In this document: positions 6,001 through 49,244 of the stretch, in pieces
Layout of the letters: each line of letters starts with the position of its first letter
Numbering within the stretch: the stretch's first letter is position 1
Assembly: GCF_037038585.1 (NCBI RefSeq)
Contig: NC_092541.1
Coordinates: 2,415,445 to 2,479,444, forward strand
DNA from: Patagioenas fasciata
Lineage: Eukaryota; Chordata; Aves; Columbiformes; Columbidae
Length of the DNA stretch: 64,000 nt
Reading direction: 5' to 3'
Translations under genes and position numbers: made by a program
The notes under the pieces: model-generated
The model's input: the letters and a program-made list of their open reading frames with translations, nothing else
Database searches by the model: none
Told to the model about the DNA's origin: nothing

Positions 6001-6748
6001 TGCCTTAGAACCTGAATCATCAAAAAACGCATGTCCTGTCTTTTAGGGCTATTTATTGTGATTAATAACAAACAGCTCCCAAGCCTCTGGCCTTCTCATT
6101 TCTTTTGGTACAGCCCCTGGATCCTGCCTTACACACTCACTGCTGCTTTTCCTTGAAATATGAGCATTCGTCACGTGAGTCAGCTGGTTAATTATGAACC
6201 TTGGTGTGCTGTTAACATGCCCCGTACCACTGCAGCAGTTTTGTTCAGTACATCTTAACCAGTAGAGTTAGATAAGTACCTATCACACCAGTCAGACATG
6301 CAGCGTTCCTCTAAATAATTGTTTAATGGAGATAAAGTGTTTTCCCAGGTAGACTTGTAGCAGGTGGAATCACCATGGCTGGTTAATCTACTAAAGTACT
6401 ACCTAGTTTATATGAATGACTGTTCTGGCCTGCAGTTAATTCTTGCCACAGCACAGATTGCTAAATCAGTGCCTTTTTGTCCTTCAAAACGTGGACTCTG
6501 GGATCTGAGGACAACGACCTCCAGTTTATGTTCTTGAGCTGCTGCATTTAAACCCACAGCCCTGACCATCTCCGTGCAGATCAGCTCTATTTGCACACAC
6601 GTTTCTAGAGGCCTGTTTAAAAACGCAGCTCTCTGTGCAACTCGACAGCATCGGGGCTCAACCGAGGAGCCACGGATGCTCTGCGCACCCTTCCCCTTCT
6701 CGCCTCCGTCCCACACGACTCTCCGGACCGACAAACCGCAGGTCTTAC

Positions 6749-6856
6749 CTTCTTTGGCCTCTCGTGGTGGGACACATGCTTCTCCTGAGCAGGGGACGTG
6801 GATCGACTCCTCCTTCCAGCGATGAAGGAGCCACCTCCAGAGTGACGCGAGGTCTT
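6749..6856 (-). CDS. MLLT6: MLLT6 coding exon 7 (basic Ser/Arg linker)
   Basis: The 108-nt exon encodes residues 185-220, KTSRHSGGGSFIAGRRSRST and SPAQEKHVSHHERPKK. It aligns with the human segment KTSRHSS...GRRSRSASPS...EKH..HHERG, but the long human glycine run is reduced to three glycines. The acceptor is CTCAG and the donor AAG|GTAAGA. The frame is phase 0 on both sides, so the exon could be skipped without a frameshift. Confidence 0.9.
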
Positions 6857-9800
6857 CTGAGGTAAGCGGGGACGGGGAGAGGATGTGCGGGACAGGAGAA
6901 AGAAAGAAGAAGAGAGAGGAAACAGCGTTAGAGAGCCCAGCTCTCACTGCTCCAGTGAGCAAAGCTATAGGAGATGGCTTCTCTACCCCATGCAGGACCA
7001 AACTCTCTTTGTACCAGATGCCCAGTCTGGTTCCTAACGCGGGGAGCACAGCGGACAAGTGCCAGCAGGCTTACAAACACATGGATCTAACTCCCCACAC
7101 TGTTCCTGGTGGCCTGTGCACGCTGACACTTGTCAGAACAGAAGCGCAGCTGCTGGGACACCGTTCTCTGAAGAACAGGCTAAAACGGAGCAGCAACATC
7201 ACTTCCACAAACCGGTAAACTCAACACAGAGCTCCACCTGAGTCAGGTCCTGAGGCCACCGGAGGTGTCCCCAGCGTGATGTTGAGGAGATGCTTGAGGC
7301 ATCAGTCACTGGATGTGACAGCACCGATAAGCAGGAAGGAAAGTGGGAAACGCCAGCAACAAAGGGGCCACTGAGACAGAAAGTGCAGCGAGAGGATCCA
7401 GTTTCCTTTTTGCTGGAGGGGGGAGAGCAGGTGTCTACTAATTATGCAGAACAGGGAAAAGGTTCCTCTCTCTCCTCTCGGTACCATTATTAATAGGGGA
7501 AAGCCCTTTGCCTCAAATGTCCCTCAAGCTGACTCATGTCTCCTGTGTCCCCTGGCGGGAGCTCTGGCAGTTCTGGGTCACCCCCCTGAGCTCCCCTTGA
7601 CCCCCTGGAGCATCCAACAGCATGGCTGCTCTGCTTTCCTGGGGCTGAATCCTCCAGCCACCCAGAGCCATAACAGATGGGAAGAACTCAACCTCCAGTT
7701 TCGACAATGGGTTTAAAGATGCTGGAGAAAGGCGAAATGAAAGTTCATCTTTATTCTGAAGTGACTCTGAATGGCTGGAAAGGGGAGCAGGCTGCAAACC
7801 GTGCTCATGTGTTCGCGGCGATTCTTACTGCTCTGAGCACAGATGCGATCTGGGATGAAATCGATGCCTTTTATGTGACCAAAAGGAAAAGATTTCCATT
7901 GCAGGGATGAAGGAACTCACCATTTTATTGAAGTGGTACTTGCAGTAGCCACAATATTTGACATTGTCGACTTCTAGGACTTCCTCTTCACACAAGAGAC
8001 CAGCCATCTGGGCACTGAAACACAGGCAATTAGGAGGAGGATAAAGCAAATCGTACAGCCAGACCACATTTCCCATCCAAGGGCAAAGAACAGTTCAGGA
8101 TACCCAGGCAGGGTCTTGAAGTTTCACGTTTTGCTTGGCAAACGGTTTGCAAGGAGCGGGGGAAAAGCTCAGCCTCTTCTAAACCCACATTAAGGTCTTC
8201 AAAATTGTCCGTACTTTTCTACCAGATTGCCTTGCAATTTTTGTTTTTAATTAGGGGAAACCAGTAACCATTGCAGCGAAAGATATATCACGAGCAAGGA
8301 ATCAGCGTGAAGCTGGGAATCTCCCCATTCTGCTGATAGGCAACGCTGTTTGCAGGTTGTGAGGGTACTGAGCACATCAGCCCTTCGAATCACATCATCA
8401 AGATGCTGCTCTTGCATGTGCTCTGCTGGAGAAGGCGCATTCCTGGGCTGGGACTCAGCTGTCTCCCCTTGGATGCCGCAGCCCAGGGAAATCCCCAGCC
8501 CTGCTCTCAGTTGGTGAAACCTCAGCCTTCCCAGGGCAGTTCCCCCCACCAAACTGCCCCTTGCAGAAAATCAAACCAGGATGCTGAGCCCGATCCCCCA
8601 GCCCAACGGCTTCAAAGCCAAAGCAGCAAAACTAAAATCTGGGGTGATTCTTGGGGTGATGCCGGGGGACTCACCAGGTGACGTGGAAAGCCTGTCGGCA
8701 GCCGTGCCGGTTACAGGCCATGCAGGCTCCCGAGGCTGCTTTGCTCTCCCGGCCCTGCTCCTCACAGATGTAGCAGGTCTGCAAAAAGAAAAAGAGAGAA
8801 AAACCAAGGTGTTTACTTGAATAAGCAGAAAATATGTCTGCTTTACTCCCACTGATCAGCAGGAAGCAAAACCTCCGAGGACTCGTAACTCCATGGCCGG
8901 TTACCTCCCTCCTGTGACAAGAGCTCTGGGCTGTTGCTCAGTGCTACGCACAAAACTCATGCATCTTTCCTCCCAAAATAACAACTGCGTCAGATCAAAA
9001 TGTGGAGTAACCACCACGCAGCTCCAAGGCAGAGCTTGCTCAAGTTGCAGAGGGTTGGGGAAGAGAGAACGGAGGACCAAAAGTTGTCTGCAAGAATAGG
9101 TATCGACTTTCTTAGTTATATGTAAAGGAATCTGAGTACCTGGAAGTTAAAATAAATGGGATGTGGGAGGATAAGATGACCCCAATAAGTCAAGGCGGCG
9201 CAAATAGACTTGGGCAGAGGGAGAAAGAGGTGGCCTTACCTTGTTGAAGCGGTCGTGGGGTACGTACTGCAGGACGATGGGCTCCATGGTGAGCACGTTG
9301 GCAAACTGCACCTCTGGGATGTACAGAGCACAAACAACGTGCGCCCACCCTGGGAAGGGGACGAGACAGAGCGGAGATTCACGTGGGGAAAGGCACAAGA
9401 GTCTCAAACCCAGGCAGGGCTGTGGGGAGCATGGGAGTGCAGGGAGGGACCCAGCTTAGGTCAGATGTTAGACTGGAAATCCTGCTTGTTGTAACTCGGT
9501 TAGCAAGCAAATCCTTTGTGGTGACAGACAGACAGGTGGCACCTCCAGGTTAAATAAGAAAGCAGAGATTTTTTTTGTGGGAAGAGAAATGTACAACGCT
9601 CATCATCCTCAAAAGCACCATCTCAAGACTTGCGACCCAGAGTTGAGGACTTAACCAAACCCAGGAAAAGCATCCAAGCTGTAAATTATGCCAAGGGGAC
9701 AGGTCTGACGGGCACTGGAAACAAAGCTCCCTTTATTGCCTGTTCTCAACACCTGAAGGCGGCTCTTTTTCAGCAAGCCAAGTTAGATTAAAATCTAAAT

Positions 9801-12800
9801 CCCCCAAGACACTTCTCAAATCAGGTGTGTAAGCTGAAATTCCAACTGGTCAGGACAGAACTGAGGAAGTTTGAAGGTCAGGAGCCTTTGGGGGCTGATC
9901 CACACCGGTACAGCTAATGCACTGGAAGGATTTAGCTGGAATTAGGATGGATTCACCTGAAGAGGCAGAACCAGACTCTGGGATTACAGAGTCATACAGC
10001 ACTGTAAGCACTTGAGCTCTACCATTCCATACAGTGCCATGGTGGTAGCACCTCTTGTGCCTGTGCACACACACCTGACCCAGCCACGTAACACATTTGG
10101 AAGATGCTCTGTTATCACAACCCAATCCCCACCACGACCCTTGGTGCTCACCTCCGTTGTCCGTCCGTTTCAGGGCTCCATCTTTGTGGGGACACAGTTC
10201 GCATCTCTAAAAATTAAACAGAAACAACAAGCTGAAGCTCAGTCCCAGCCCCGCGGGGCCGCAAAAGAGGTGATTCATTTACAACATGGTTAAGAAAGAT
10301 GGGGCTGCTTTCAAAGAGAGGAAGTGGAAGAAGGGCTGAAAGGGGTTTGGGTAGAAAAAGAGACTCTGACACAGCTCGATATCTGATGGGGATGTATTTA
10401 AAGCCTCAGCCCAAGAGCCACGGGGCTACAAGTGAACCCTGACTTTCACAGGGCTTTTTAAAATAAGCTTTGCGGTTGGGGAGTAAAACTGAAAACCATG
10501 ACTCAGAGAGCCGAAGGCAAATAAAGAGAAGCCATTATCTATCTTTGCCCCTCTCCTTCCTTCCTTCTCTCTTACTCTTGTGACATTTTTTCCAGTCTCA
10601 TGAGGCTGCTGTGATGTTTTGGCTGATGGGACGTGGGGGCCATTGGGGCCGTGCCCCCCACATCCCACCAGCAAAAAGCGGCACTGTTGTTATCGGCTGC
10701 CCATCTTGCTTTCCCTGTGACTTAGGTTGAAACACGGATGGATGGACGGATGGACAGATGGATGGATGGATGGATGCAGGAGTTTCTCACTGCCAGAGGG
10801 CTGGAGAGCTGCTCTCCCAATTACTATGGAAAGCCTGGCAGAGCCAAGACAGAATAAGAACTGGGTTAACTGAGACACTGTAATAAGAAATTTGCACTTG
10901 AAAAGGCCCCTCCGCTCTCCCCTCCACCCCTCAGATCAAAGCGGCTCTCCCACCATGCGATTAGCAAAGCTCTGATTGTAACAAGAGGGGTTAACAGCTC
11001 CATCGGCCCCACACAAGACTTTTAATAGCCCTGCCTCTAAATGACAGCTAAAGCCTTCACATGATCCCTCACATGAGTGCCCTCTGGCCATTGCAGCTCA
11101 CCGGGCTTCCCAGACAATTTGATTACAAAGTGGATGGGCTTTGGGTTGCTTACTGCAAGCACAGCAGCATCCTCAGCATCCTTGAGGGACCCGAGCATCT
11201 GAGAGGGGTTATGAGCAGGGATTAGCGCTACCTCTTCCTTTTATTCAACCCGCATAGACCAATGGGGTTTTTATTTCAACTCTGGGAAATAGAGCTTGGT
11301 TGCTTTAAAGCAAAGTTGGGATGGGTAAGGTTAGAGCTCCTGAACCCCTGGGGCTTCTAACTTTGGGGTCTTCCACCAAGTGACTCCAGCTGAAGTTGGG
11401 GTTCCTGCTCTCTTTCCAAAGCTGAAGAGGGAACTGAGACACAGAAATCAGGAGACATATGTTTTAAAGCACTCCCTAAGGAGTGTAATATTCCCCACGC
11501 CTCCATATCTCATTCGCAAAGCGAAAGTATAAATATTTAGCCAATAAATATGTTTGTTATGGACAAAGCCTGTAAACCTCTTTAAGATATTTCTGTGCAG
11601 GCAGATGTGGGAAGAAAAACATTGCTGTTTTTCAAAGGACTTTGCCACACAGTCATTGTGAAAGAGACACGGCTATCAGCTCGCCCTGCTGCTGCTGGCA
11701 GTGTGTTCAGCGCTCAAATAGCAGCATTGCTCCCTCAACATCCCCAAGGCAGCGTCTGCGGGCTGAAAACGCCCCTTTTACAGTTGGAGTGAGATGCAGG
11801 GAAGGAGTTGGACCCTCCAGCCTCGCTGGACCACGGGGCACAGATTCAAAGAGTTTCAGCAGCAGAGCCAAGCGCAGATCCCCTCAGACCTGCCTCATTT
11901 CCCTCACTCTGATCGCGCTGCTCTCTACATCAAAGAACGAGATTCTTTGTAAGCATTTACCCATCTGCATGTCTGTTGCTACGGACGGCTGGCGTTCAAC
12001 TGAAAAGGTGAGGGATTTAGATAGAAAATCATCCCCAGCTCTGCTTGGGAAGGAAGATTATCGCTGTTCAGTTATTCTAGGAGCACGGCTGAATGCACGG
12101 GGCTGAGCGGCATGACTGAGCCCACCACGCATTGTCCAACAGATTTCACTGAGGGCGACTTTAATAAGGAGCCACCTGCAGGGCCATTGTTTTTTGGATA
12201 CCTCGGGGGCAGTTTGAAGCACATAAGGTGCAAACGAAAAGTTACGGTCCTTGCAAGGAGCACAGGTGAGAAGGACTTGGGTGGACGTGTGTTTCTAGAG
12301 CTTACACTGAATTGCAGCTAATGCAGAAAAGGCTCCTCTGCCTGCACGGCTGGGGGAGCGGGGGAAGGAGGTCCACGAAACCCAAATTCCTTTCTTTGCT
12401 ATGAAACCATCCGCAGGATGTAAAACCGCTCAAAGACTGCATTTGATCTTCTTTACTGCAGCGCACATAAAAGCAGCATCTTACAATGGGCCAAGAGGCT
12501 CAGGTCTGGAAGTCTGGTCTTGTTTACACTCCGGCTTCCAAGGAGGAACGAGTTAACACACCGGGGAGAGCGTGGTACGGATACCTCAGCCCCCCTCCTG
12601 GCCAAGCTCTTTGCCCATCTGCGGAGCAGATTAAACGCGTGTCCTGCAGCGAGCGGGGAGCCGGGATGGGACGGGACACGCTGCGCAGGTCCCCAGCACC
12701 GCAGCACCTTCCCAGCTGGGTGCTCCAGAAAACATTCGGCTCAGAAGGCAGAGCAGGCACTAATAAATGTTGTTCGTGCTGACCGGGGCCTTTTGTATTC

Positions 12801-15800
12801 AAGGAAAGCCAAAGCTTCACTTAAATCCACCTTTAAGGAAGCAAACGGGGGCAGCTATGATGGATTTACCGTACGGCAAAAGCACCATCCATGGTATAAT
12901 ATGTAAAGATCGGCAGCCGGTGGGTGCCGCCGTATCCGACACCGGCTCTGCAGAGGAGCTGGTGGGCTATAAACCCGCAACTCATTTTACTGCGCAAATA
13001 CCTTTGCCACACAGAGGGAGCGAAGGGGCAGCCCTGGCCCGATTGTTTCCACCTTCCTGCCTCACCGGGAAATGCCAGAATTAATTAAGAACATTCGTAA
13101 AGTGTTCTACACTGCTAAGCTGCTACTTCGGCAGAAACTAAAGCCCTGATCCAGCTTCCTGTCATTTCCTCGGCTGCTTTACAGGCTCAGAAGACTTCAC
13201 GCAGGAGGCTGCTGCTGCGAGATGCGAATGCCAATCCCCCTGTCAGCCGGATGATAACTCTGACATTATAGCAGCGTCTCAGGTGATGCCAACATCCCTC
13301 CGCTCCAAAAACTCCTGAGGACTTGTATGGAGAAAGCAACACGGAAACCACCTTTTACCATACCATTAGTTTTTAGAAGATTGATGCCTCCAGACTCAAA
13401 AAAATTGATATTGATAACTTGCTTAAAAGCACCTCTGGCAGCATTTTTGTTGAAGCGGTTAATAGCGTCGTATAAAACCCTTTGATACAATTGTCCCTCT
13501 GCTCTAAACAAGCTATAGCTATAGGAGGTTCCAGGCTCCAGCACTGTGGCCAGGGGACCGCGAAGGGCATCGAACGGCCCCATTCGGTGCAAGCACAAGC
13601 GTGTCCGTACTCACCACCCGGGCGGCTCTTTCTTGAGATTCACATTTCCGACAGAACCAGGGCCCGGTAGGAACCTGCACAATTCCATAGCAAGCTGGAA
13701 GAAAAGCAGAGACAGTTCATTTCCACATCTTTACATCGGCTGTTGAATTTCTCAGGTGTATATAAAAGTTTATCAGAGTTGTTATCGATCACAGACGGGT
13801 CGCTAAGACAAAAATTACACCTGTAATGCACTTTATTTCCCCTTCTAGTTTCCATATCCAGCAGGCAGTCTTAATTTGGCCTAAGTGGGAATGGAGCACT
13901 TCATACACCGTGCCCAGCAAACACAATGGAGCAATCTCTTACCCCTTCACTTTTCGAGTGTCACCAGAGCTTTAAATATGAAATGGGTGGCTACGAAGCA
14001 CCTTAAGCATAAATAGGCCCAAGCTAAAAATCTCAGCATCATGAAGGAAATTGTATCTGTGAGAATTCAGACAGACACCAGGTGAAACTTCCATGTCCAT
14101 CAGCCACATCCAGCCTTTCACACATCCAAGATCGCAGAACCAGGGATCTTCAGGCCGCTCCCAGGGCTCTGTGTTAATACAAATCTCCAGCTGACAAGCC
14201 GATCAAACCGCTGATTTTATCCAGCTCTACCACGCGTCCCTCTTGCTTCCTGCATCGCTGCCGATGCTCCCAGGGTCTCCCTCTGCAACCTGCAGCTTCC
14301 ACTTCTTTACAATCAGCTCCTTCCTCTCATGGGGAGCTGTTGCTTGAAAACTGTTCACCTTCAGCAGTCTTCTCCCTCTAAACACCCCAGGTTGGTCTTT
14401 GTGAGTCCCGAAGGAAGCGTTTGTGACCCTGAACGGGCTCTTAACCACCAGGCAGGTGGGTTTAAAACAAGAGGTTGGTAACGATAAGAATAAATCTACA
14501 AACCTCAGAGAAGAGTATAGGAGTCTCCTAGGAAAGAACGAATTATATCTTCCTTATTCCACCTTCAAAGGCGAACTGGTGGTTGGAATAGAATCCCAGT
14601 CACTCGAGACATTTGAAACTAGGTTGGGCAAAGCATCTGAAAATATCCTGCTGGATGTTCCCCGAGGAACGGACCGGCCACCACCCACCAGACGTTCTCC
14701 CCGTCTCTCTAATGTCTGTTATTCGGCATCGGCCAGGAAAAGGAACGCAATTGTGGAGTTAAAGCCAGAGAGCTGACTGCAGGATGAGCCAAGGCGTCCA
14801 CATAAGCAAATAGAAACGACATGAAAGCCGGGACGGAGGAGCCGGCTTGGGTCCATCTTTAGCCGCGGGCTCCATGCCAAGGCGAGCGCTCAGCCGGAGC
14901 CAGCGCCAGCTCCTGCGCCCGCTGCTCCAACCAGGAAGAAAACAAGGAAAAATGCAGAGCATAAGTAAGGCAGAGTGGAAAATACAATTGGTGTTCTTGA
15001 CTATCTTATTAGAACCTTCATTTGCAATCAGATGTTTCTGTTAGTGTTTTGGAACGATTTCTAACCGTGGTCGCAGAAACAGTGCTGATATTTGTAAGAA
15101 TTGGTCCTAATGTGTAGCTATAACATAAGCTTAAAGAAAAATTACAGGATTCTCAACTTAACTGTACAATCATTTCAAAAGGTAACTTTGGTTTTGCGGA
15201 TGTTCAAGCAGTACATGAGAGACACCAAACCGACTGCACAGAGTGAGACAAGATGACCCAGATGATCCCCTACAGCGGTTTGTTTCTATTTAAGAAATAA
15301 AAGCCTCCCAAAACACGGCGCTACTACCCGGTTGACGAGCAGCCTTTAAAAAGAGATGGTTGAAGAACCTCCACTACACACTGCTACGCTCCTTATGAGT
15401 TATTATATCCCGAAGGACTCTTACAAGACCTAAATAGACAGTTGTGGTGCCAAACACTCCAGCGGTGCCCTGTGGGAGACTTTCCCAATGTGATGCAGCT
15501 CTACCAAACAACACTTGGTGCCACCTCCAAACCAAATACATCCAGCCCCCGGACCTGTGCGGGCCTACAAACAGCCAGCCTAAGAGATTCAAAGTATTGC
15601 ACCTATGAAACCCCTCCTGGCAGCAAACAAGTGTTTGTATCAATCTTCGGAGAGGGCTCGAGGATGCTGATGGCCTTTGTCCCCCTCTAAAACAAGACAG
15701 CAATGAAGAAATCTATGCGGTTTGATAAATAACGGGAAGAATGGAAGGGTTACACCAGCTAAATGAAAACAGAAAGGAGTGTCTGTCCAAAGAGACCCTT

Positions 15801-21362: not shown

Positions 21363-24080
21363 AAATCAGGATATTTCTTTACACCATAGATGGGGAAATC
21401 CCAACAGCAACCACTCAGCTCTGCAGTGCACATTTTGCTACGGTTTAGGGCCTCTTAGCTCTCTTTTCCCATCACCAGACAAGTAAAAATCCCACTGAGC
21501 TCTACGAAAGCTTCTGGTACCGTGAGGACTGTGACCTGCAGAGGCAAAGTCTGTGTTTGAACAGCAGCTCCGGCGCCTCCGCAGCCGCTCGTGCTTCCCA
21601 AGGGAGTGAAACCGAGACCTTTGCCCCCACTCCTCGGTAACCACACCTTCCAAAGCCCCGCTTTGCCTCTCTGTTCTGCCCTGCTCGCATCCGCACAAGG
21701 AGCATTTCATCCAGGTATCTTTCCTTAAGAAACAGCTCTGCTTAGTGAAGGTGGTTGCCAAAGGGAAAGAAACGATCGGCTTTCGGAACAGATCGGTGAA
21801 TCAGCGCTCACTTTGTGCTTACTCCATTTGGGGCTAAATTCGGTGCTTCCCATGTACCAACGCACACATAACAATTCAGGGAATAAGGAAATGCAACCAC
21901 ACGTGGTCCCAGCTTTGCTGCCTCCGCGACTTTTTTGCCTTGGCCAAGTCCCTTCCGCCCTTTGTGCCCCATTTTCCCCCTTTGTCCCACCAGTTCCCCA
22001 CTTTGGGTTGTTTGTCTGAAAAAGCACGGTATAAATACAAGTGATTATTCATTAAACAATGTCATTAAGGGCTTTGAAAGGAAACACTGATGTCATCAAC
22101 AGCTTTGGGAGGAAATAGTGCTATTAATGACTTATAAAGGAAAAAAGTAGTGATTCAAATATCTCCTATGCCCGTCTTGTTTTTTTTCCTTCTAGCACCT
22201 TAAATCAAGTGAGACAGTGGCTCATATTTGTCTTCATGGTTTTGATGCATTCAAAACAGTAAAACTGATTAATATAGGAGGTCACTGTATGGGAAGATGA
22301 CAAATTCGCTTTTTGGTACTAAATTACTCGTTTATGAGTGGAAATATTTCGAAGGGATCGTTAGAATCGCTCCCTTGTCTCCCTGAAAGCCCAAACTCCC
22401 ACGCTTTCATGACATACCCGTAGTTTTGACCGCTTTCCAGCCCGCTCACCCCGCCGTCCTCTCCCACTGGGTGACGGGGATTCCTATGGGTCGCGGATTT
22501 AAAGTGCTTGCGCTATTTATTCACTTCTTCCTGCAAGAGCGAGAATGTGCTAGGGCTGAGGAACATCGAAACAAGTCCGGTTGAACAAACCTAATGGGAT
22601 AGTCGTAAAATCACATAAACATGGCTTTGGAAGGAACTTCAAGAGGCCAATTAGGCTAATTCCCTATGGGGAGGCAGATCCAAGGACTTATTAGTGCCAT
22701 ATTATTTTTATTGTTATTATTATTTACATTAGGTAGGGAAAGTACACAACAATTACCAGAGAAATAAATGATGTGGTCTATGTCCAGAAACCAAGAGTAT
22801 TTTTAAGGAGCCCGTACTTAGGCTTTCAAGCCCGTTCTTAGGAACCTAATCAGGCGCTTTGGCTTTGAAACCAAACCAAGCGCTGGAGCTGCTCCATCCC
22901 TCTGCTGATGCTCACGGAGCAGGACCAAGGCTTTGGTTTCAACTCTCCTGGGGTGCTTTGCCATGGAAAAGTGGTACGTACTTCATAGATTCAGGCCCTG
23001 ATTCTTCAGCCTCAGTCCTGATGTGAAAAGGGGGATTAATAATCACAAACAGATCCTTTTTTTAATGGGAGTTAGGCACCTGTTTCCCTTTGTGCCTTGG
23101 GATGTTTTCCTCACATTCCTGCGTTTTTAGCGCCTTTAAGAAAGACTTGGCAGTAATTGAAGCTTTGCCTCTACCCACCAGTTGCTCTCATTTAATTGGT
23201 TTGCAAACCGGTTTAATTAAACGCTCTGTTTTGACATCCTTGCATTGGTTCAGAGCGTTGCATCAGCTTAGCTTGCGATTGTGCATTCAACTCTTGGCGG
23301 CGCGATCGGAAACGGTCTTTAAGACAGGAAACCTGAGGTAAAAGCCTGAAGGTAACAGCCCTGCAGCGACTGCACCAAACCACGGCGTGTTTCCAGGGCT
23401 GAAAACACCCTGAGCCCCACGGGACGGCGAGATGTGGGGCAGCCGGTGGGACAGACCGCCCTTCACCGCCCCACGGCCAAGCCGAAGCTGCTAAACCTAC
23501 ACAGGGTCAGGCTTTCTTCTCCCTTCCTCCCAAATTACTCATATATATACTTAAATTTATGTGTATATAATGACTTCTCAAGCTGTTTTCCAGTATGCAA
23601 AAGCTTCCATTACAGAGTTCTGCAGGAAAAGTCCTGCATGGAGCTGCACAAGCTCTGCTGCACCTTCACCCCAGAGCACCCTGTGCTGGGGAGGGCTGCC
23701 GGCTCTCACCCAAACCCTCCTGCTCCCTAAAATGTATGCAAAAACATCTATACCCACAGCCCAGGGGTGTGCTGGGTGCTGCAGGCCTATGGGGCTGCCG
23801 AGCCCCTACTGCAGATGCTGCCCGGTGGCCGGTGCCCGGCTCCGGGTCCCAACCCGTGTTGGTGGGGCTGAGAAAGCCCCGTGAATATTGACAGGAAACG
23901 ATCGGTGGCTTTTTTGGTTGCGAGCTGCAGCGCTGAGGTTTAGGCAACGACATCCTGTCCCCGCTCGGCTCCCGGGGACCGGGCAGGAAGCGGGGGCGGC
24001 GGCGGGGGGGAGCAGAGCCCCGGACCGGGACTGGGTGGCCCCTCGCCCACCCTACGGAGTGCAGAGGCGAGCACGTCTGT
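21363..24080. other. Intergenic DNA, part 2
   Basis: No gene is supported. A diverged CR1 3' end is likely at 22604-22690. The stretch 23940-24060 is GC- and CpG-rich. The rest is AT-rich unique sequence with short TTATTATT runs near 22700. Confidence 0.6.
22604..22690 (-). mobile_element. Diverged CR1 3' end, antisense
   Basis: The sequence AAAATCACATAAACATGGCT followed by TTGGAAGGAACTTCAAGAGG and a 'ccaattaggctaattcccta' stretch matches the pattern of antisense CR1 3' ends (aatcatagaat..ggttggaaaggacct). It is short and old, so the family call is tentative. Confidence 0.4.
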
Positions 24081-24081
24081 C

Positions 24082-24600
24082 CCTCCATCACTCCCTGCAT
24101 CCCTCCCTACATCCCTGCATCCCTGCATCCCTCCCTACATCCATTCCTGCATCCCTGCATCCATCCCTCTATCAATCCCTGCATCCATCCCTACATCCCT
24201 GCATCCCTCCCTACATCCATTCCTGCATCCCTGCATCCATCCCTCTATCAATCCCTGCATCCATCCCTACATCCATCCCTGCACCCCTCCCTGCATCCCT
24301 GCATCCATCCCTACATCCATCCCTGCGTCCCTACATCCATGCCTGCATCCATCCCTCCATCCACCCCTCTATCAATCCCTGCATCCATCCCTACATCCAT
24401 CCCTCCATCCCTGCATCCATCCCTCCATCCATCCCTCTACCAATTCCTGCATCCATCCCTCCCTGCATCCCTCCCTACATCCATCCCTCCATCCCTCCTT
24501 CCATCCCTCTATCAATCCCTGCATCCATCCCTCCCTGCATCCATCCCTACATCCATCCCTCCATCAATCCCTGCATCCATCCCTCCATCTACCCATCACC
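24082..24600. repeat. CATCCCTC/CATC-rich minisatellite, about 520 bp
   Basis: The array is built from CATC, CCTGCATC, CCTACATC and CCTCTATCAAT variants. A higher-order period of 76 bp is visible: the ATTCCTGCATCC block recurs at 24143 and 24219. The plus strand is almost purely pyrimidine plus A. The long His-Pro-Ser-Leu/Ile-Pro frames it creates are artefacts. Confidence 0.95.
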
Positions 24601-35640: not shown

Positions 35641-36168
35641 CATCCCGCACCTTGTCGGTAGCTTTGTTTGCTTAAGCATCTCAGTGGCTTTGCACAGCAA
35701 AGTGTGTGTGGGGGGGGGTCTGTGCTTGTTGATTCCGCCCCCCCCCCCAAGAGATTATTTTTGAAGTGGAAGGTGGGGTGCGCGGCCGCGGGGTGGGAGT
35801 TGGCCGGGGGGAGCCTGGAGGATGCAAGATGTTTGACTTCTTTATTTTTCTTTCTTTTCTTTTTGCTGGGGAGGGGGAAGACGAGGAGTCGAGCCCCGGT
35901 ACAGGCGGAGGAACTGGGTGTTTGGAAGATGTTGCAAACCATTGACTGGAGCGTTTGAAAGGGAGATCGACTGCTTTGCCTTTTTTTTTTGCCTTTTTCT
36001 TCCCCTCCCCCCTTCCCCACCTCTCCGGAGGGGTAGGGATGTGTGTGATCAGGGAGTGGAAACAAATATGTCCTTATTTTCAATGCCCCCTTTGAAAGAG
36101 ACGAAGTAAATGCTCCTTGCAAAATGTTCCTGACCTGCGAAGGGACCTTCGGAATTGTTCCAGCCACC
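35641..36168 (+). other. EPOP: Probable EPOP 5' leader with hairpin-forming G9/C11 runs
   Basis: Sequence between the CpG promoter and the start codon. It has nine G at 35710-35718 and eleven C at 35738-35748, which could fold into a very stable stem with a 19-nt loop. Several upstream ATGs (about 35822, 35829, 35929, 36039, 36084 and 36110) would handicap translation, so the leader may be spliced. The T/C-rich tract at 35978-36025 could serve as an acceptor tract, but only a weak GAG follows it. Confidence 0.45.
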
Positions 36169-38325
36169 ATGGATTACAATGGGGAAGCCAGGCCGGGGGA
36201 TTTTCATGCTGGCTATCAAGAAATCGAAGGGATAAACTTGGGATACTTACAGATCAATGGCACCCAGATGTTTGCTTTGGCCCAGGTCCTCAGCGACCTG
36301 TTTAAGGATATCCCCAGGACCACCATCAGCAAGAAGATGGAAACCTTAAAGATAAAGAGCCGACGCTGCGATCTCAAAGAGCTCCGGACCCTCAAAGCCA
36401 TCAACTCGGTGCCCACCCGCGCAGTGAAGTGTTCCCTCATCTCCAAGGCGGACCTGGAGGCTCTTTGCACCTCCTGCAAGAGCCTCAGCCCCCGGAGGAG
36501 GAAGAGGAAAAGGAAAAGCAAGAGGAGGGAGCAGCTGCTGCTGCCGGACCCGGGGGAGCTCTTCCCCTGTCCCCGGCCCCAGCTGCTGCCGCCCTGCAGA
36601 GCCGGCGGCTGTTGCTCCCCCCCGGCCCCCGCCCGCCCCAAACTGCCCCCCGCTTTCCCCAAGCCGCGCTCGGCACCGGCCGCGCTGCTCCCGCAGCCTT
36701 TCCACAGGGCCTTCCCCGCCTTCGAGAAGCCGCCTCGGGGCCGGAGGGGTTACGCTCTGGCGGGTCGGGGGGGGCTCTTTGCCGGTGTCCTGGCCGGGTA
36801 CCCCCGCGACTTGACGCTGCTGCATCCCGCGGCCGCGCATCCCGCCGTGCATCCCGCCGCGCTCGCCCAGCCGGGCCGGCGCAAGCGGGGGCCCTGCTGT
36901 GCCAAGGGGCTCTTCCCGGCGGAGAAGGGGTCCGCGGCCTCCAGGAAAAGCCGCTCCTCCGTCTTCCCCGGCTCCAAGAGGCAGGGAACCTCCGCCGGCT
37001 ACTCCAGCGACTCGGACTCCAGCCTGGACTTCGGTGGGTCCAGCCCCGCCACGTCCAGCGACTCGTCGGAGGAGGAGGAGGAAGAGGAGGAGGAGGAGGA
37101 AGGGGACAGCTCGTGCAGCAGCGAGGAAGGCAGCTCCTCGGAGTCGGAGAGCAGCTCGCTGTGCAGCGGGGACTCGGTGCAGAGCACCCGGTACAGACAG
37201 GCGGCTCTGCCCCGCTTCCAGCCGCAGCCCCCCCGGGAGCCCCTCAGTGAGGAGCGCCCCGCCGAGCCCCCCCCGAGCGTGGGCAAAGCCCTGCGCCCCG
37301 ACCCCAACCTCCTCTTCCTCTCGCAGCAGCTCTGGGCCAGGACTTTGCGAGCATCAACTTTGGAAAGTTTGAGCCCGGTTCTAGCCCTAGGCTCAGGGGC
37401 TCAGCCGCTGCCGGAGCTGTACGCAAAGCAGGAGGCCTCCCCTTCCTCCTCCTCCTCCTTCTCCTCCTCCTCCTCCTCCCCCCCTCCCTCCCCGAGCAGC
37501 ACCCCTGGGGGGGCTCCGCAACAAAAGGAGGGAGGCTTTGGGGACGCGGAGCCCTGCGCCAAAGGGAAGGATTTGCACAAAGATGCCTCGAACAATAGAG
37601 CCTCGTTAGGCCCCAGTGACCAGGCAGAGAGGCAAAGCGGAGCTTTAACCGGGCGAGCGCTTTCCCCAGAGCCGGTGCCGGGCTCGGCCCCGCAGCCCCC
37701 GGCTCAGGAGCCGCCGGGGAACCTCGACCCGTCCCCAGCCGGGGAAACGGGGGAGCCCCGGCGGGAGCACTTTGACCGGCTGATCCGGCAATCCAAGCTG
37801 TGGTGTTACGCCAAAGGGTTCAACCTGGACGGGAAAAGTTTGCGGCACGGAGGGAGGACGGAGCCTTGTAAAGCCGCAGAGCTCAAATCCTCCGGCTCCA
37901 AAAGAGCAGAGAGCCCCAGCACCTTGTCAAACAAAGCTTTGAAAGGCAATGGCTCGGAAAGGAATGCCAAGCGCAGACGCCTTGCCAGAGGCGCTGAGGC
38001 AGAAAGGCAACAGAGCTCCTCTAAAGGGAGGCCACAAAAGACTCCGAGGAGAAATGCCAAAAAGGGAAACACTCACTGCAAACGCCTCGGCAGCGCCGGG
38101 CCCACCCCGCCTCGGAATTCCTTCAGCCTCATGGGCAACTTCCCCTGTATTCCCTCCCTGGTCGTGGGGGAAGATGGGGACCTGTGTCCAGCCTCCTCCT
38201 TGGGGGTTAAAAACTCCTGGGTCCTCTCCAAAACTCACCCGCTGTGGAGCTGGCACTTGGGGGGCAACGCCATCCCGGTGCCCCCCAGCCTCAAATTCCG
38301 GGGCTATAGCTTGGAGGATCTCTAA
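36169..38325 (+). CDS. EPOP: EPOP orthologue with an N-terminal SKI/DACH domain (718 aa, single coding exon)
   Basis: EPOP in mammals bridges elongin BC and PRC2.1 (through SUZ12) at CpG islands. The start at 36169 lies in a perfect GCCACCATGG; an in-frame ATG at 36124 has a poor context. Residues 13-104 form a SKI/DACH domain (GYLQINGTQMFALAQVLSDL; RTTISKKM; LKAINS; LISKADLEAL). A basic cluster follows at 109-120. An acidic/Ser tract at about 278-335 ends in SVQSTRYR (336-343), echoing SVQSIRFR in SKIDA1. The segment DPNLLFLSQQLWARTLRAS (378-396) lines up with the human EPOP elongin-binding region. EHFDRLIRQSKLWCYAKGF (533-551) is nearly identical to human EPOP. A C-terminal block (650-718) has VVGEDGDL, PASSL, HPLWSWHLGG and PPSLKF; this region binds SUZ12 in mammals. 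Human EPOP is about 379 aa and lacks the SKI/DACH half. SKIDA1 itself is the alternative name, but it lacks the EHFDRLI motif and sits beside MLLT10. Confidence 0.9.
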   Translation: MDYNGEARPGDFHAGYQEIEGINLGYLQINGTQMFALAQVLSDLFKDIPRTTISKKMETLKIKSRRCDLKELRTLKAINSVPTRAVKCSLISKADLEALCTSCKSLSPRRRKRKRKSKRREQLLLPDPGELFPCPRPQLLPPCRAGGCCSPPAPARPKLPPAFPKPRSAPAALLPQPFHRAFPAFEKPPRGRRGYALAGRGGLFAGVLAGYPRDLTLLHPAAAHPAVHPAALAQPGRRKRGPCCAKGLFPAEKGSAASRKSRSSVFPGSKRQGTSAGYSSDSDSSLDFGGSSPATSSDSSEEEEEEEEEEEGDSSCSSEEGSSSESESSSLCSGDSVQSTRYRQAALPRFQPQPPREPLSEERPAEPPPSVGKALRPDPNLLFLSQQLWARTLRASTLESLSPVLALGSGAQPLPELYAKQEASPSSSSSFSSSSSSPPPSPSSTPGGAPQQKEGGFGDAEPCAKGKDLHKDASNNRASLGPSDQAERQSGALTGRALSPEPVPGSAPQPPAQEPPGNLDPSPAGETGEPRREHFDRLIRQSKLWCYAKGFNLDGKSLRHGGRTEPCKAAELKSSGSKRAESPSTLSNKALKGNGSERNAKRRRLARGAEAERQQSSSKGRPQKTPRRNAKKGNTHCKRLGSAGPTPPRNSFSLMGNFPCIPSLVVGEDGDLCPASSLGVKNSWVLSKTHPLWSWHLGGNAIPVPPSLKFRGYSLEDL

Positions 38326-46927: not shown

Positions 46928-47490
46928 GATGAGGATCCCATCGGGATGCGTTGCAGGATGAGGATCCATCCCACCGGGATGTGCTGCTGTAGGATGAGGA
47001 TCCCACTGGGATGGTCTCCAGGATGAGGATCCCATCGGGATGTGCTGCAGGATGAGGATCCTGTTGGGATGCATTTCAGGATGAGGATCCCATTGGGATG
47101 GTCTGCAGAATGAGGATCCCATTCGGATGCGTTTCAGGATGAGGATCCCATCGGGATGTGCTGCAGGATAAGGATCCTGTTGGGATGCATTTCAGGATGA
47201 GAATCCCATTGGGATGGTCTGCAGGATGAGGATCCCATTCGGATGCGTTTCAGGATGAGGATCCCATTCGGATGTGCTGCAGGTTAAGGATCCTGTTGGG
47301 ATGCATTTCAGGATGAGAATCCCATTGGGATGGTCTGCAGGATGAGGATCCCATTTGGATGCGTTTCAGGATGAGGATCCCGTTGAGATGGATGCATTTC
47401 AGGATGAGGATCCTGTTGGGATGCGCTGCATGACCGGGATGCCATCAGGATCCTTCGCAGGACCAGGATCCCATTGGGATGCACTGTAGG
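46928..47490. repeat. 29-bp minisatellite with 116-bp higher-order structure
   Basis: About 19 copies of a 29-bp unit built around AGGATGAGGATCCCATTGGG. Four variant monomers, ending in GTGCTGC, GCATTTC, GGTCTGC and GCGTTTC, repeat in fixed order. The GCATTTCAGGATGA block sits at 47071, 47187 and 47303, exactly 116 bp apart. Most monomers carry GGATCC. The unit length is not a multiple of three, so the Trp-Asp-Pro-His frames on the minus strand are not coding. Confidence 0.95.
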
Positions 47491-49244
47491 ACTTGCAGCA
47501 TCACCCAGGGAACCTCCCCAGCCCGGGGGGGTCTTTGCCATGCTGGAGCTCATGGAATCCCCATACGGGGAGCACTGGGGTCCCAGCACGGGCGTGTTGG
47601 CAGCACCGCTCTCCACGTGCTTTTTATTAACATCATGACAAAATTATCGCTGTCCCCCCTGCAAAAAAACACCCCAATTTATCACCATACGTGCACTCAC
47701 CCCGGGTCCCCGAGGGCGTAGTGGTGGCAGGAGCCCGGTCGCTTCCTTCCAGCCCCATGAGCCCCACGCTGCAGCACAGACAAGGCCTCAGACGCTGCTT
47801 TTTACATCCTTCTAACTAATACCACATGACAGTGATTGAAGCTAATCAGCACAGCCTCCCCGTGTCAATGCAAGAATCCTCATAACCTCGCTGTTTACAT
47901 TAAGTACAGCAGCGTTTCAGCTATAAAAGCACTTTCAAACTGACATTAACTGCAGTGTAACGATGTTAGATTGACTGGAGTTGGGTCAAACACTTACCCA
48001 GAGCCTGCTAGAAAGAAGCTGCCGTCAATTTTATTGCACAAGCGTTAGCCTGGAGTCGTCCTTGCGAGGCCGGACTTCCCTGGGCTCACAGAAGCCGCTT
48101 TGCGCTTCCACGCCGATGTTCCGTACCGCTCTCCCTTGTCAATTTGCAGCCTTGTAGGACCTTTTTATTTAATGCTTTTGCTTGCAAACCTGGTTACTCA
48201 CGAGGTGCTGGAGGCGGCTGCAAAATCGCTTTGCTTCTTCTCCCTTCCTCGCTGCCGGAATTTGCCGTCACCGTCACAGCCCACGAGGCTGCTCCTGTTC
48301 CCGATTTCACCCCCCTGTGTGTGAACGGGAGCTGCAGCGCAGGGGAGAACCCCCAGGACCATAAGGTTTCTCCTCCCCAGAGACCTTCAGCTTCAGGGAT
48401 GGGGAATAAATCACAGCGCTTTGATTTCTGCCCGTGCGCGTCCACACCAGTGTGTGCATCACTTCGGCAGAAAATGTATTGTGGAAATAATTAAACCAAT
48501 ATAAAAGCGGTGCTTAGAAAACACTTTGGATGCACTAGAGTAATATATATATATATATATATATTTCTTTTTTAGAGGGTGGTGCAGCTTTTCTCCATAG
48601 CTGCAATTAAACAGGCTGGTAATGAACTTGGTTCCTTGTTCACCCTTCACAGCTGCCAACCCAGGGGTGCCCTCGCTGCCCCATCCCATCAGCGACCCCA
48701 GCAGGGGCTGCACAGCAATGACCCCCCGGCAGGAGGAACCCATTATCATTAAGAGTATAATTGTGAGTATTTTCCCAGAGCTGCTGCAGCTGGTGCTGCC
48801 CACACGGTGGCAATATCTGCCCGGGAGATGCTGGGGATGCCTGCACAGGTAAGGAGGGGGGGGTTTGCCTAGAATTTGGGGTCTTTTAACTCATTTTCCT
48901 CCCTTGTATTTTGACTGAGAAGCTTTGGTGTCTCCTACAAGGGACAGGACTTTTGAGCAGGGCCTGAGGGGGCGTTCGTTTTAAACTAGGAAGAGACCCT
49001 CACGGTCTCTCAGGATTATCCAACCCAACTCCAGCACTGAACCAGGTCCTAACTGGTTTAGGAGGCTTTAACCAATAAGTTTTTTATGCCTTTTTTTTTT
49101 TGCAGTTTGACTTTTATTTCTGTTAGTTTTGTAGTTCCTTTCTTTTGGGTGCATTTTTGAAGTTTGTGTTTATTTTTTATTTTGCAGTTTGGTTTTTATT
49201 TTTACAGGGTTTTTTCTGCGTTTTTTAAAAAGTCTTTGCATTTT
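47491..49244. other. Gene-poor DNA downstream of EPOP, part 2
   Basis: No gene is supported. There is a (TA)n microsatellite at 48541-48564. T-rich sequence at 49080-49230 includes two imperfect copies of TTTTGCAGTTTG (near 49097 and 49180). Confidence 0.55.
48541..48564. repeat. (TA)n microsatellite
   Basis: A near-perfect run of about eleven TA units. Confidence 0.95.

What the first reader, a model, noticed from the sequence alone, without database searches (positions are those of the whole stretch)
36169..38325. Bird EPOP carries a full SKI/DACH domain that mammalian EPOP lacks
One uninterrupted reading frame contains both a SKIDA1-like SKI/DACH domain (residues 13-104) and the EPOP signature EHFDRLIRQSKLWCYAKGF plus the EPOP C-terminal block. 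Human EPOP, as I recall it, is about 379 residues and starts near the elongin-binding segment, which corresponds to bird residue about 378. The bird protein thus looks like the undamaged ancestral form, and mammalian EPOP looks like its C-terminal half. Functionally, a SKI/DACH module would be joined directly to elongin BC and PRC2 recruitment.
Basis: partly seen in the sequence, partly recalled or inferred. Interest (0 to 1): 0.9.

Follow-up and report, generated by a model that had tools for sequence, protein, structure and literature searches.

The report
Bird EPOP keeps its SKI/DACH domain
The window's bird gene makes a long form of the gene-silencing helper EPOP that carries a SKI/DACH domain; EPOP of pouched and placental mammals is most likely the same gene with that domain lost, not a newly assembled one.

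Summary
One open frame (36124-38325, + strand; 718 aa from the ATG at 36169) holds a SKI/SNO/DAC domain (residues 18-104) and an EPOP C-terminal region (605-713). The architecture is in print as "SKIDA1-like" (Fischer, Weber & Liefke 2022), and databases already name bird, turtle, squamate and amphibian copies EPOP.

The useful result concerns origin. That review says mammalian EPOP shares only the C-terminal region with SKIDA1-like. With that region removed, a profile of 46 non-mammalian proteins still finds 9 of 9 marsupial and 33 of 33 placental EPOPs tested (E 7.6e-29 to 1.2e-17; best of their shuffles 1.0). The LWCYAKGF helix block is in 54 of 58 mammalian entries; a GTSAGYSSDSD block survives in 9 of 9 marsupials. 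MLLT6 lies in the same window. So therian EPOP is most likely SKIDA1-like itself, minus SKI/DACH.

Not supported: that the bird protein binds elongin BC, or that mammalian EPOP starts at bird residue 378. The mammalian BC-box segment found no counterpart in 67 non-mammalian N-terminal halves. Monotremes, transcripts and a true SKIDA1 were out of reach; the tree is only suggestive.

The parts
36124..38325 (+). Whole coding frame, 733 aa from the upstream ATG; stop at 38323-38325
   Evidence: relatives P0002 and P0008 start at the corresponding upstream Met
36169..38325 (+).
36220..36480 (+). SKI/SNO/DAC (Dachshund homology) domain, residues 18-104
   Evidence: Pfam PF02437 55.7 bits; AlphaFold and Foldseek to SnoN, SKI, Dachshund
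36481..36534 (+). Basic tract after the domain, residues 105-122 (11 K/R of 18)
36970..37218 (+). GTSAGYSSDSD - acidic run - DSVQSTRYRQAALP block, residues 268-350; the GTSAGYSSDSD part survives in marsupial EPOP
37279..37356 (+). DPNLLFLSQQLWARTLRAS motif, residues 371-396; well kept in turtle and lizard, partly in a caecilian, hardly aligned in mammals
37753..37827 (+). PRREHFDRLIRQSKLWCYAKGF helix block, residues 529-553
   Evidence: a mammal-built profile finds it in 54 of 54 non-mammalian bony-vertebrate proteins tested and 0 of 13 cartilaginous fishes; helix predicted at 530-541 and 545-548
38116..38322 (+). C-terminal region (PRC2/SUZ12-binding in mammals), residues 650-718
   Evidence: Pfam PF15223, 9xzi_D; SUZ12 binding from PMC4860827 passages
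6743..13695 (-). Coding exons of MLLT6 (AF-17), about 22 kb from the frame; the interval between was not annotated
   Evidence: tblastn with P0064 (named protein AF-17), 6 blocks, 82-100% identity

Best explanation
The gene is the avian EPOP orthologue, called SKIDA1-like in print. Its folded N-terminal SKI/DACH domain and the basic tract behind it probably act as a targeting module that touches DNA or a co-repressor. A long disordered, acidic linker and the LWCYAKGF helix lead to the C-terminal region, which docks on SUZ12 and so places the protein in PRC2.1. Therian EPOP is the same gene after loss of the SKI/DACH domain; its elongin-BC-binding BC-box is a therian-side gain. Shown here: the architecture, the predicted fold, collinear homology to mammalian EPOP outside the C-terminal region, MLLT6 in the same window. 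Inferred: PRC2 binding in birds (from conservation with mammals), the targeting role of the domain, absence of elongin BC binding, and the direction and date of the loss.
For: Domains; fold. Both domains together in 78 of 84 non-mammalian entries and 5 of 5 new ones. The C-terminal-free profile finds 9 of 9 marsupial and 33 of 33 placental EPOPs, against best E 1.0 in 660 placental and 5.1 in 180 marsupial shuffles; of 54 reversed controls one, a shark, was listed at E 1.9. A mammal-built LWCYAKGF profile finds 54 of 54 non-mammalian bony-vertebrate proteins at 35-68 bits; 670 shuffles reach at most 2.5. The GTSAGYSSDSD profile finds 9 of 9 marsupials at 14.1-23.7 bits; 750 shuffles reach at most 4.3. 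MLLT6 exons on the minus strand to the left; the joined peptide differs from AF-10 at 15 of 148 positions and from the finch AF-17 model at none. A penguin model joins this gene's domain to SRCIN1. Therian EPOP falls inside amniotes, support 91/84. The domain is strongly kept outside mammals: 82 of 92 residues shared with coelacanth against 44 of 69 in the C-terminal region.
Against: The tree is not decisive: the AU test does not reject mammals outside the bony-vertebrate clade (p 0.0605), nor outside other tetrapods (p 0.256); branches are long, marsupials come out paraphyletic, and the C-terminal region alone joins mammals to the long lungfish branch. No true SKIDA1 was in hand, so it is untested whether SKIDA1 also has the LWCYAKGF or GTSAGYSSDSD blocks; no monotreme was in hand. 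The human order SRCIN1-EPOP-MLLT6 is recalled; a paper search for it found nothing, SRCIN1 was not found in the window, and a finch model that fuses this gene to AF-17 in one protein (P0064) does not fit the opposite strands seen here unless it is a model or assembly error. Placental EPOP lacks the GTSAGYSSDSD block (0 of 33), and that profile also passes 12 bits in only 8 of 16 amphibians, 3 of 4 ray-finned fishes and 5 of 13 cartilaginous fishes. The first roughly 90 mammalian residues find no secure match, so a replaced N-terminus is not excluded. Mammalian EPOP gives PRC2 DNA-sequence preference without a SKI/DACH domain (PMC12890814 abstract), so the domain need not be the DNA reader.
Confidence: 0.78

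Rival explanations
1. The published view: EPOP is a mammal-specific protein that shares only the C-terminal region with SKIDA1-like, the N-terminal part possibly being replaced by new sequence of unknown origin.
For: Stated in PMC8864842 section 9. The mammalian N-terminus finds nothing above shuffles in 67 non-mammalian N-terminal halves and nothing convincing in 2008 six-frame segments of the window.
Against: Homology outside the C-terminal region in 42 of 42 mammalian proteins tested, with the LWCYAKGF block in 54 of 58 mammalian entries, the other 4 being shorter or partial models, and a further block in 9 of 9 marsupials. Only the first roughly 90 residues remain unexplained.
Confidence: 0.13
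2. The window gene is SKIDA1 itself, the paralogue, and the EPOP label is wrong.
For: Same two-domain plan; [quoted passage not shown] No true SKIDA1 was available to exclude it by tree.
Against: The neighbour is MLLT6/AF-17, not MLLT10/AF-10: 15 of 148 positions differ from AF-10 and none from finch AF-17; that SKIDA1 neighbours MLLT10 is recalled. It carries the LWCYAKGF block shared with mammalian EPOP.
Confidence: 0.05
3. The frame is an artefact: two separate genes or products read as one.
For: No transcript was available; some bird database models are fragments or join parts of this gene to neighbours.
Against: Unbroken frame with both parts in one model from birds to coelacanth; 95% identical full-length cluster of 39 members.
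Confidence: 0.02

Closest known systems
SKIDA1-like (zebrafish skida1l; sauropsid and amphibian entries named EPOP)
   Same: SKI/SNO/DAC domain, acidic middle, LWCYAKGF helix block (bony vertebrates), C-terminal region; published for some fish and most amphibians, reptiles and birds (zebrafish name)
   Different: No difference found; this is another member
Mammalian EPOP (C17orf96)
   Same: LWCYAKGF block (opossum 23 of 25 residues), C-terminal region (opossum 44 of 69), GTSAGYSSDSD block in marsupials; MLLT6 neighbour (human side recalled)
   Different: No SKI/DACH domain in 44 of 44 tested by profile; has an N-terminal BC-box segment with no counterpart found in the bird
SKIDA1 (C10orf140)
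   Same: SKI/SNO/DAC domain and C-terminal region
   Different: Separate paralogue; not retrieved here, so the comparison rests on the paper
SKI, SnoN, Dachshund
   Same: Fold of the N-terminal domain
   Different: 22-28% identity over that domain; EPOP C-terminal region not part of them (recalled)

Membership tests
EPOP / SKIDA1-like orthologue group | EPOP C-terminal region | tested here: met
   Pfam PF15223 86.1 bits; 9xzi_D E 4.9e-18. Shared with SKIDA1, so not specific.
EPOP / SKIDA1-like orthologue group | LWCYAKGF block shared with mammalian EPOP | tested here: met
   birds 7 of 7, 61.6-68.3 bits; whether SKIDA1 has it was not tested
EPOP / SKIDA1-like orthologue group | Locus next to MLLT6 and SRCIN1 | tested here: inconclusive
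   MLLT6 exons in the window; SRCIN1 not in the window; human order recalled
EPOP / SKIDA1-like orthologue group | Phylogenetic place with mammalian EPOP | tested here: inconclusive
   Amniote clade 91/84, not starred; AU p 0.0605 against the main alternative
SKI/SNO/DAC domain proteins | Dachshund homology fold | tested here: met
EPOP in the functional sense (elongin BC adaptor) | BC-box binding elongin BC | tested here: inconclusive
   No counterpart of the mammalian N-terminal segment above shuffles in 67 non-mammalian N-terminal halves. Loose pattern hits exist: SLISKADLEA inside the folded domain in birds and turtles and, with a wider pattern, TLESLSPVLA-like sites at residue 397 in birds. 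Binding itself cannot be tested here.
PRC2.1 accessory subunit | Binding to SUZ12 | not testable with these tools
   Inferred from the mammalian C-terminal region (PMC4860827 passages; PMC7000746 passages)
SKIDA1 | Groups with SKIDA1 in a tree | not tested
   No true SKIDA1 recognised among the hits; nine bony-vertebrate entries named SKIDA1 or SKIDA1-like that I checked carry the LWCYAKGF block

The most novel reading that the evidence does not exclude
Therian EPOP arose by truncation in place: translation shifted to an internal methionine of the SKI/DACH domain (bird residue 57, METLKIKSR; marsupial start METLxxxSR), the rest of the domain decayed, and an elongin-BC-binding BC-box formed in the remaining linker. 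A PRC2 targeting domain was thus exchanged for a link to the elongation machinery in the ancestors of therians. Evidence is thin: p about 0.002 for the Met-anchored 9-residue match of opossum to bird or turtle and about 0.01 at 12 residues (found after looking), whole-segment alignment from that Met under 0.05 in 8 of 20 pairs, profile-profile P 0.058, and no remnant in three placental upstream stretches.
Probability: 0.2. Interest if true: 0.7.

Novelty: already known. Interest (0 to 1): 0.42.

Why it matters
EPOP is described in print as a mammal-specific PRC2 partner whose N-terminus may be of unknown origin. If it is instead the therian form of an old vertebrate gene, the question changes from where EPOP came from to what its SKI/DACH domain did and why therians could lose one of the best-conserved parts of the protein. 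If the bird protein indeed lacks elongin BC binding, chicken cells would also allow EPOP-PRC2 function to be tested without it.

Tried and rejected
A true SKIDA1 was looked for among the hits and none was recognised; no sequence was supplied from memory. Searches scored only the 7981 and 7983 candidates sharing most words, so absences there are weak. Monotremes: none named in the listed hits (one search listed 120 of 148; names are cut short). SKI/DACH remnant in mammalian EPOP: a domain profile from 63 proteins gave no match in 44 mammalian proteins (best real domain iE 91). Mammalian N-terminus elsewhere in the bird locus: 2008 six-frame segments, best iE 0.14 at 14862-15005 (-); the best within the gene's span is antisense, iE 1.3 at 37707-37805. 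Remnant in mammalian upstream sequence: three placental in-frame extensions of 31-42 residues, p 0.28-0.66. BC-box in birds: loose pattern matches only. The apparent 11 of 22 identity of opossum EPOP to the SKI/DACH domain was gapped scatter around METL; it led to the truncation idea, which stays unproven. SRCIN1 in the window: no convincing match. Rfam: no match at gathering scores. Two papers opened for the word EPOP were irrelevant (a hoopoe name and a program).

Rows dropped: 46 of 55 proteins in the non-mammal set entered the profile; my cut pattern lost P0050 and P0073-P0079, and P0080, a SRCIN1 chimera put into the amphibian set by mistake, fell out in the same step; it was taken out of the set in later scripts. 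12 of 13 cartilaginous fishes entered. The placental set was 33 of 49 retrieved (short, extended or odd models left out). The trees used 40 rows chosen by me. After checking this report I lowered the main confidence from 0.80 to 0.78 (and raised the first two rivals by 0.01 each) because the finch fusion model does not fit the strands seen here and because SKIDA1 was not tested for the LWCYAKGF block.

Full report
Observation. The window carries one unbroken frame at 36124-38325 (+). Pfam finds Ski_Sno_DHD at residues 18-104 and EPOP at 605-713, both well above their cut-offs. Sequence search of solved structures gives EPOP chain 9xzi_D for residues 650-716 and SKI, SnoN and Dachshund for the N-terminal domain. 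An AlphaFold model from 52 aligned proteins is confident over the SKI/DACH domain and otherwise mostly of low confidence (474 of 718 residues under 50), with a helix at 530-541; Foldseek places the domain with SnoN and SKI first and Dachshund next.

Relatives. The first homology search listed 93 proteins. Of the 84 I take as non-mammalian, 78 carry both Pfam domains: birds, turtles, squamates, amphibians, lungfish, coelacanth, ray-finned fishes and sharks; the 6 others are P0013, P0040, P0069, P0080, P0084 and P0085, which are fragments, a chimera or models lacking one domain. A search with the coelacanth SKI/DACH domain added rays and a chimaera, 5 of 5 with both domains. A search with opossum EPOP added more mammals; over, 58 of 58 mammalian entries listed carry the EPOP domain alone. 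[quoted passage not shown] Two of the three searches were capped to the candidates sharing most words.

What is in print. PMC8864842 (section 9 read whole; passages) describes SKIDA1, SKIDA1-like and EPOP: SKIDA1-like, with the SKI/SNO/DAC domain, in some fish and most amphibians, reptiles and birds; EPOP in mammals; EPOP sharing only the C-terminal region with SKIDA1-like, the other parts showing no homology and the N-terminal part possibly being replaced by new sequence; the BC-box being mammalian-specific. PMC9916924 (passages) suggests that zebrafish skida1l could be orthologous to EPOP. PMC4860827 (passages) reports that the C-terminal region, tested as residues 285-379, binds the SUZ12 VEFS box in vitro and is 52% identical to SKIDA1. 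PMC7000746 (passages) states that the C-terminal region docks on the ZnB-Zn part of SUZ12 and that L40 in the N-terminal BC-box is needed for elongin BC association. These two accounts of the SUZ12 contact differ and I did not resolve them. The searches EPOP with SKIDA1 (4 papers), C17orf96 with C10orf140 (3 papers) and the wider one (5 papers) together list 6 papers; I read passages of all 6, and none of the passages states that EPOP and SKIDA1-like are homologous outside the C-terminal region. A search with birds and orthologues (4 papers; passages of 2 seen) added nothing. The held library is open-licence only, and one of the two original EPOP papers was tried and is not held.

Homology outside the C-terminal region. 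I cut that region off and built a profile from 46 non-mammalian proteins. It found 9 of 9 marsupial proteins (E 7.6e-29 to 9.1e-26) and 33 of 33 placental proteins (E 1.9e-21 to 1.2e-17); the best of 660 placental shuffles had E 1.0, of 180 marsupial shuffles 5.1, of 240 shark shuffles 0.26, and one of 54 reversed controls was listed, at 1.9. In the two placental proteins whose matches were printed it covers residues 140-290 and 201-290; the LWCYAKGF block itself sits at about residue 252 of the 379-residue form, before the published 285-379 region. In the two marsupial proteins printed, a second match covers residues 91-143 and 90-139, the GTSAGYSSDSD block. The 22 residues PRREHFDRLIRQSKLWCYAKGF are identical in 48 of the 184 proteins held, including the window bird, turtles, amphibians and 8 of 9 marsupials; the core SKLWCYA is in 54 of 58 mammalian entries, the four others being P0142, P0143, P0147 and P0148, shorter or partial models. 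A profile of the block built from mammals alone found 54 of 54 non-mammalian bony-vertebrate proteins, 0 of 13 cartilaginous fishes, and at most 2.5 bits in 670 shuffles. The GTSAGYSSDSD profile, built from 31 sauropsid and lobe-finned sequences, found 9 of 9 marsupials, 0 of 33 placentals above 12 bits, 8 of 16 amphibians, 3 of 4 ray-finned fishes and 5 of 13 cartilaginous fishes, and at most 4.3 bits in 750 shuffles. This contradicts the statement that only the C-terminal region is shared.

Locus. Six blocks of MLLT6 (AF-17) coding sequence lie on the minus strand between 6743 and 13695. The joined peptide differs from PDB AF-10, its paralogue, at 15 of 148 positions and from the finch AF-17 model at none. 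SRCIN1 was not found in the window. A penguin model that joins this gene's domain to SRCIN1 fits a SRCIN1 neighbour. A finch model joins this gene to AF-17 in one protein, which fits closeness but not the opposite strands seen here, so it may be a model or assembly error. The human order SRCIN1-EPOP-MLLT6 is my recollection; a paper search for it found nothing. I did not annotate the 22 kb between MLLT6 and this gene.

Tree. Forty proteins over 192 columns, rooted on the cartilaginous fishes, give the order ray-finned fishes, coelacanth, lungfish, amphibians, amniotes, with therian EPOP inside amniotes at 91/84 on a long stem (0.9) and marsupials paraphyletic. The support is not decisive: holding mammals outside the bony-vertebrate group costs 10.25 log units, AU p 0.0605; holding them outside other tetrapods is not rejected, p 0.256; the C-terminal region alone (76 columns, AU p 0.121) does not resolve the place and joins mammals to the long lungfish branch. 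No SKIDA1 row was available. Nine entries named SKIDA1 or SKIDA1-like from ray-finned fishes, coelacanth, turtle, lizard and a bird that I checked carry the LWCYAKGF block, and I took them as SKIDA1-like.

The mammalian N-terminus. The first roughly 90 residues, with the BC-box around L40, match no non-mammalian N-terminal half (67 tested; the 12 best hits were all shuffles) and no window segment convincingly (2008 tested, best iE 0.14). No SKI/DACH remnant is seen in 44 mammalian proteins or in three placental upstream stretches. One lead is that the marsupial start METLxxxSR resembles METLKIKSR inside the SKI/DACH domain: for opossum p about 0.002 at 9 residues with bird or turtle and 0.009-0.011 at 12; 0.003 with a caecilian, 0.009 with coelacanth, 0.014 with a lizard, 0.17 with a shark; for one placental 0.014 with bird or turtle. 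Whole-segment alignment from that methionine gave p from 0.010 to 0.42 over 20 pairs, under 0.05 in 8; profile-profile comparison gave P 0.058 at exactly this stretch, with 0.9% probability. I keep it as the novel case.

Mechanism. Conservation argues that the SKI/DACH domain mattered: 82 of 92 residues are shared with the coelacanth, more than in the C-terminal region (44 of 69) or the GTSAGYSSDSD-to-RYRQAAL stretch (57 of 81 aligned); with a turtle both the domain (89 of 92) and that stretch (77 of 78 aligned) are nearly identical. The domain is followed by 11 basic residues in 18. PMC8864842 calls it a putative DNA-binding domain. The likeliest reading is a PRC2.1 subunit with its own targeting module and without elongin BC. 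Against a simple DNA-reader role, mammalian EPOP gives PRC2 a DNA-sequence preference without the domain (PMC12890814 abstract), so the domain may instead hold a co-repressor, as SKI does (recalled).

Verdict. Real, already described in outline, and more interesting for what it says about mammalian EPOP than for the bird protein itself.

Noticed in passing
P0154-P0184 except P0158 and P0170: 29 listed bird entries named 'EPOP protein, partial' (228-296 aa) lack the SKI/DACH motif by pattern; they look like truncated models of this gene.
   Followed up: partly
P0064 and P0080: Two database models fuse this gene to neighbours: finch AF-17 and penguin SRCIN1. The finch one does not fit the opposite strands of the two genes in this window.
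   Followed up: partly
13 cartilaginous-fish proteins (P0063, P0065-P0068, P0070-P0072, P0095-P0099): They keep the SKI/DACH domain and C-terminal region but lack the LWCYAKGF block (0 of 13), so that block is a bony-vertebrate gain or a loss there, or these are a different paralogue.
   Followed up: partly
window 37279-37356: DPNLLFLSQQLWARTLRAS motif, well kept in turtle and lizard and recognisable in a caecilian, of unknown role and apparently lost in mammals.
   Followed up: no
P0062, P0059, P0060: Salamander proteins are 1061-1202 aa; the axolotl one has a repetitive linker (SGHSKSA-DPRS-like units) between the GTSAGYSSDSD and LWCYAKGF blocks.
   Followed up: no
P0073-P0079, P0081-P0083: Frog proteins are short (406-473 aa); the SKI/DACH domain of Xenopus P0081 is much diverged.
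   Followed up: no
window 46928-47491 and 24080-24589: Two minisatellite arrays: 29/58/116-base units and 12/32-base TCC-rich units.
   Followed up: no
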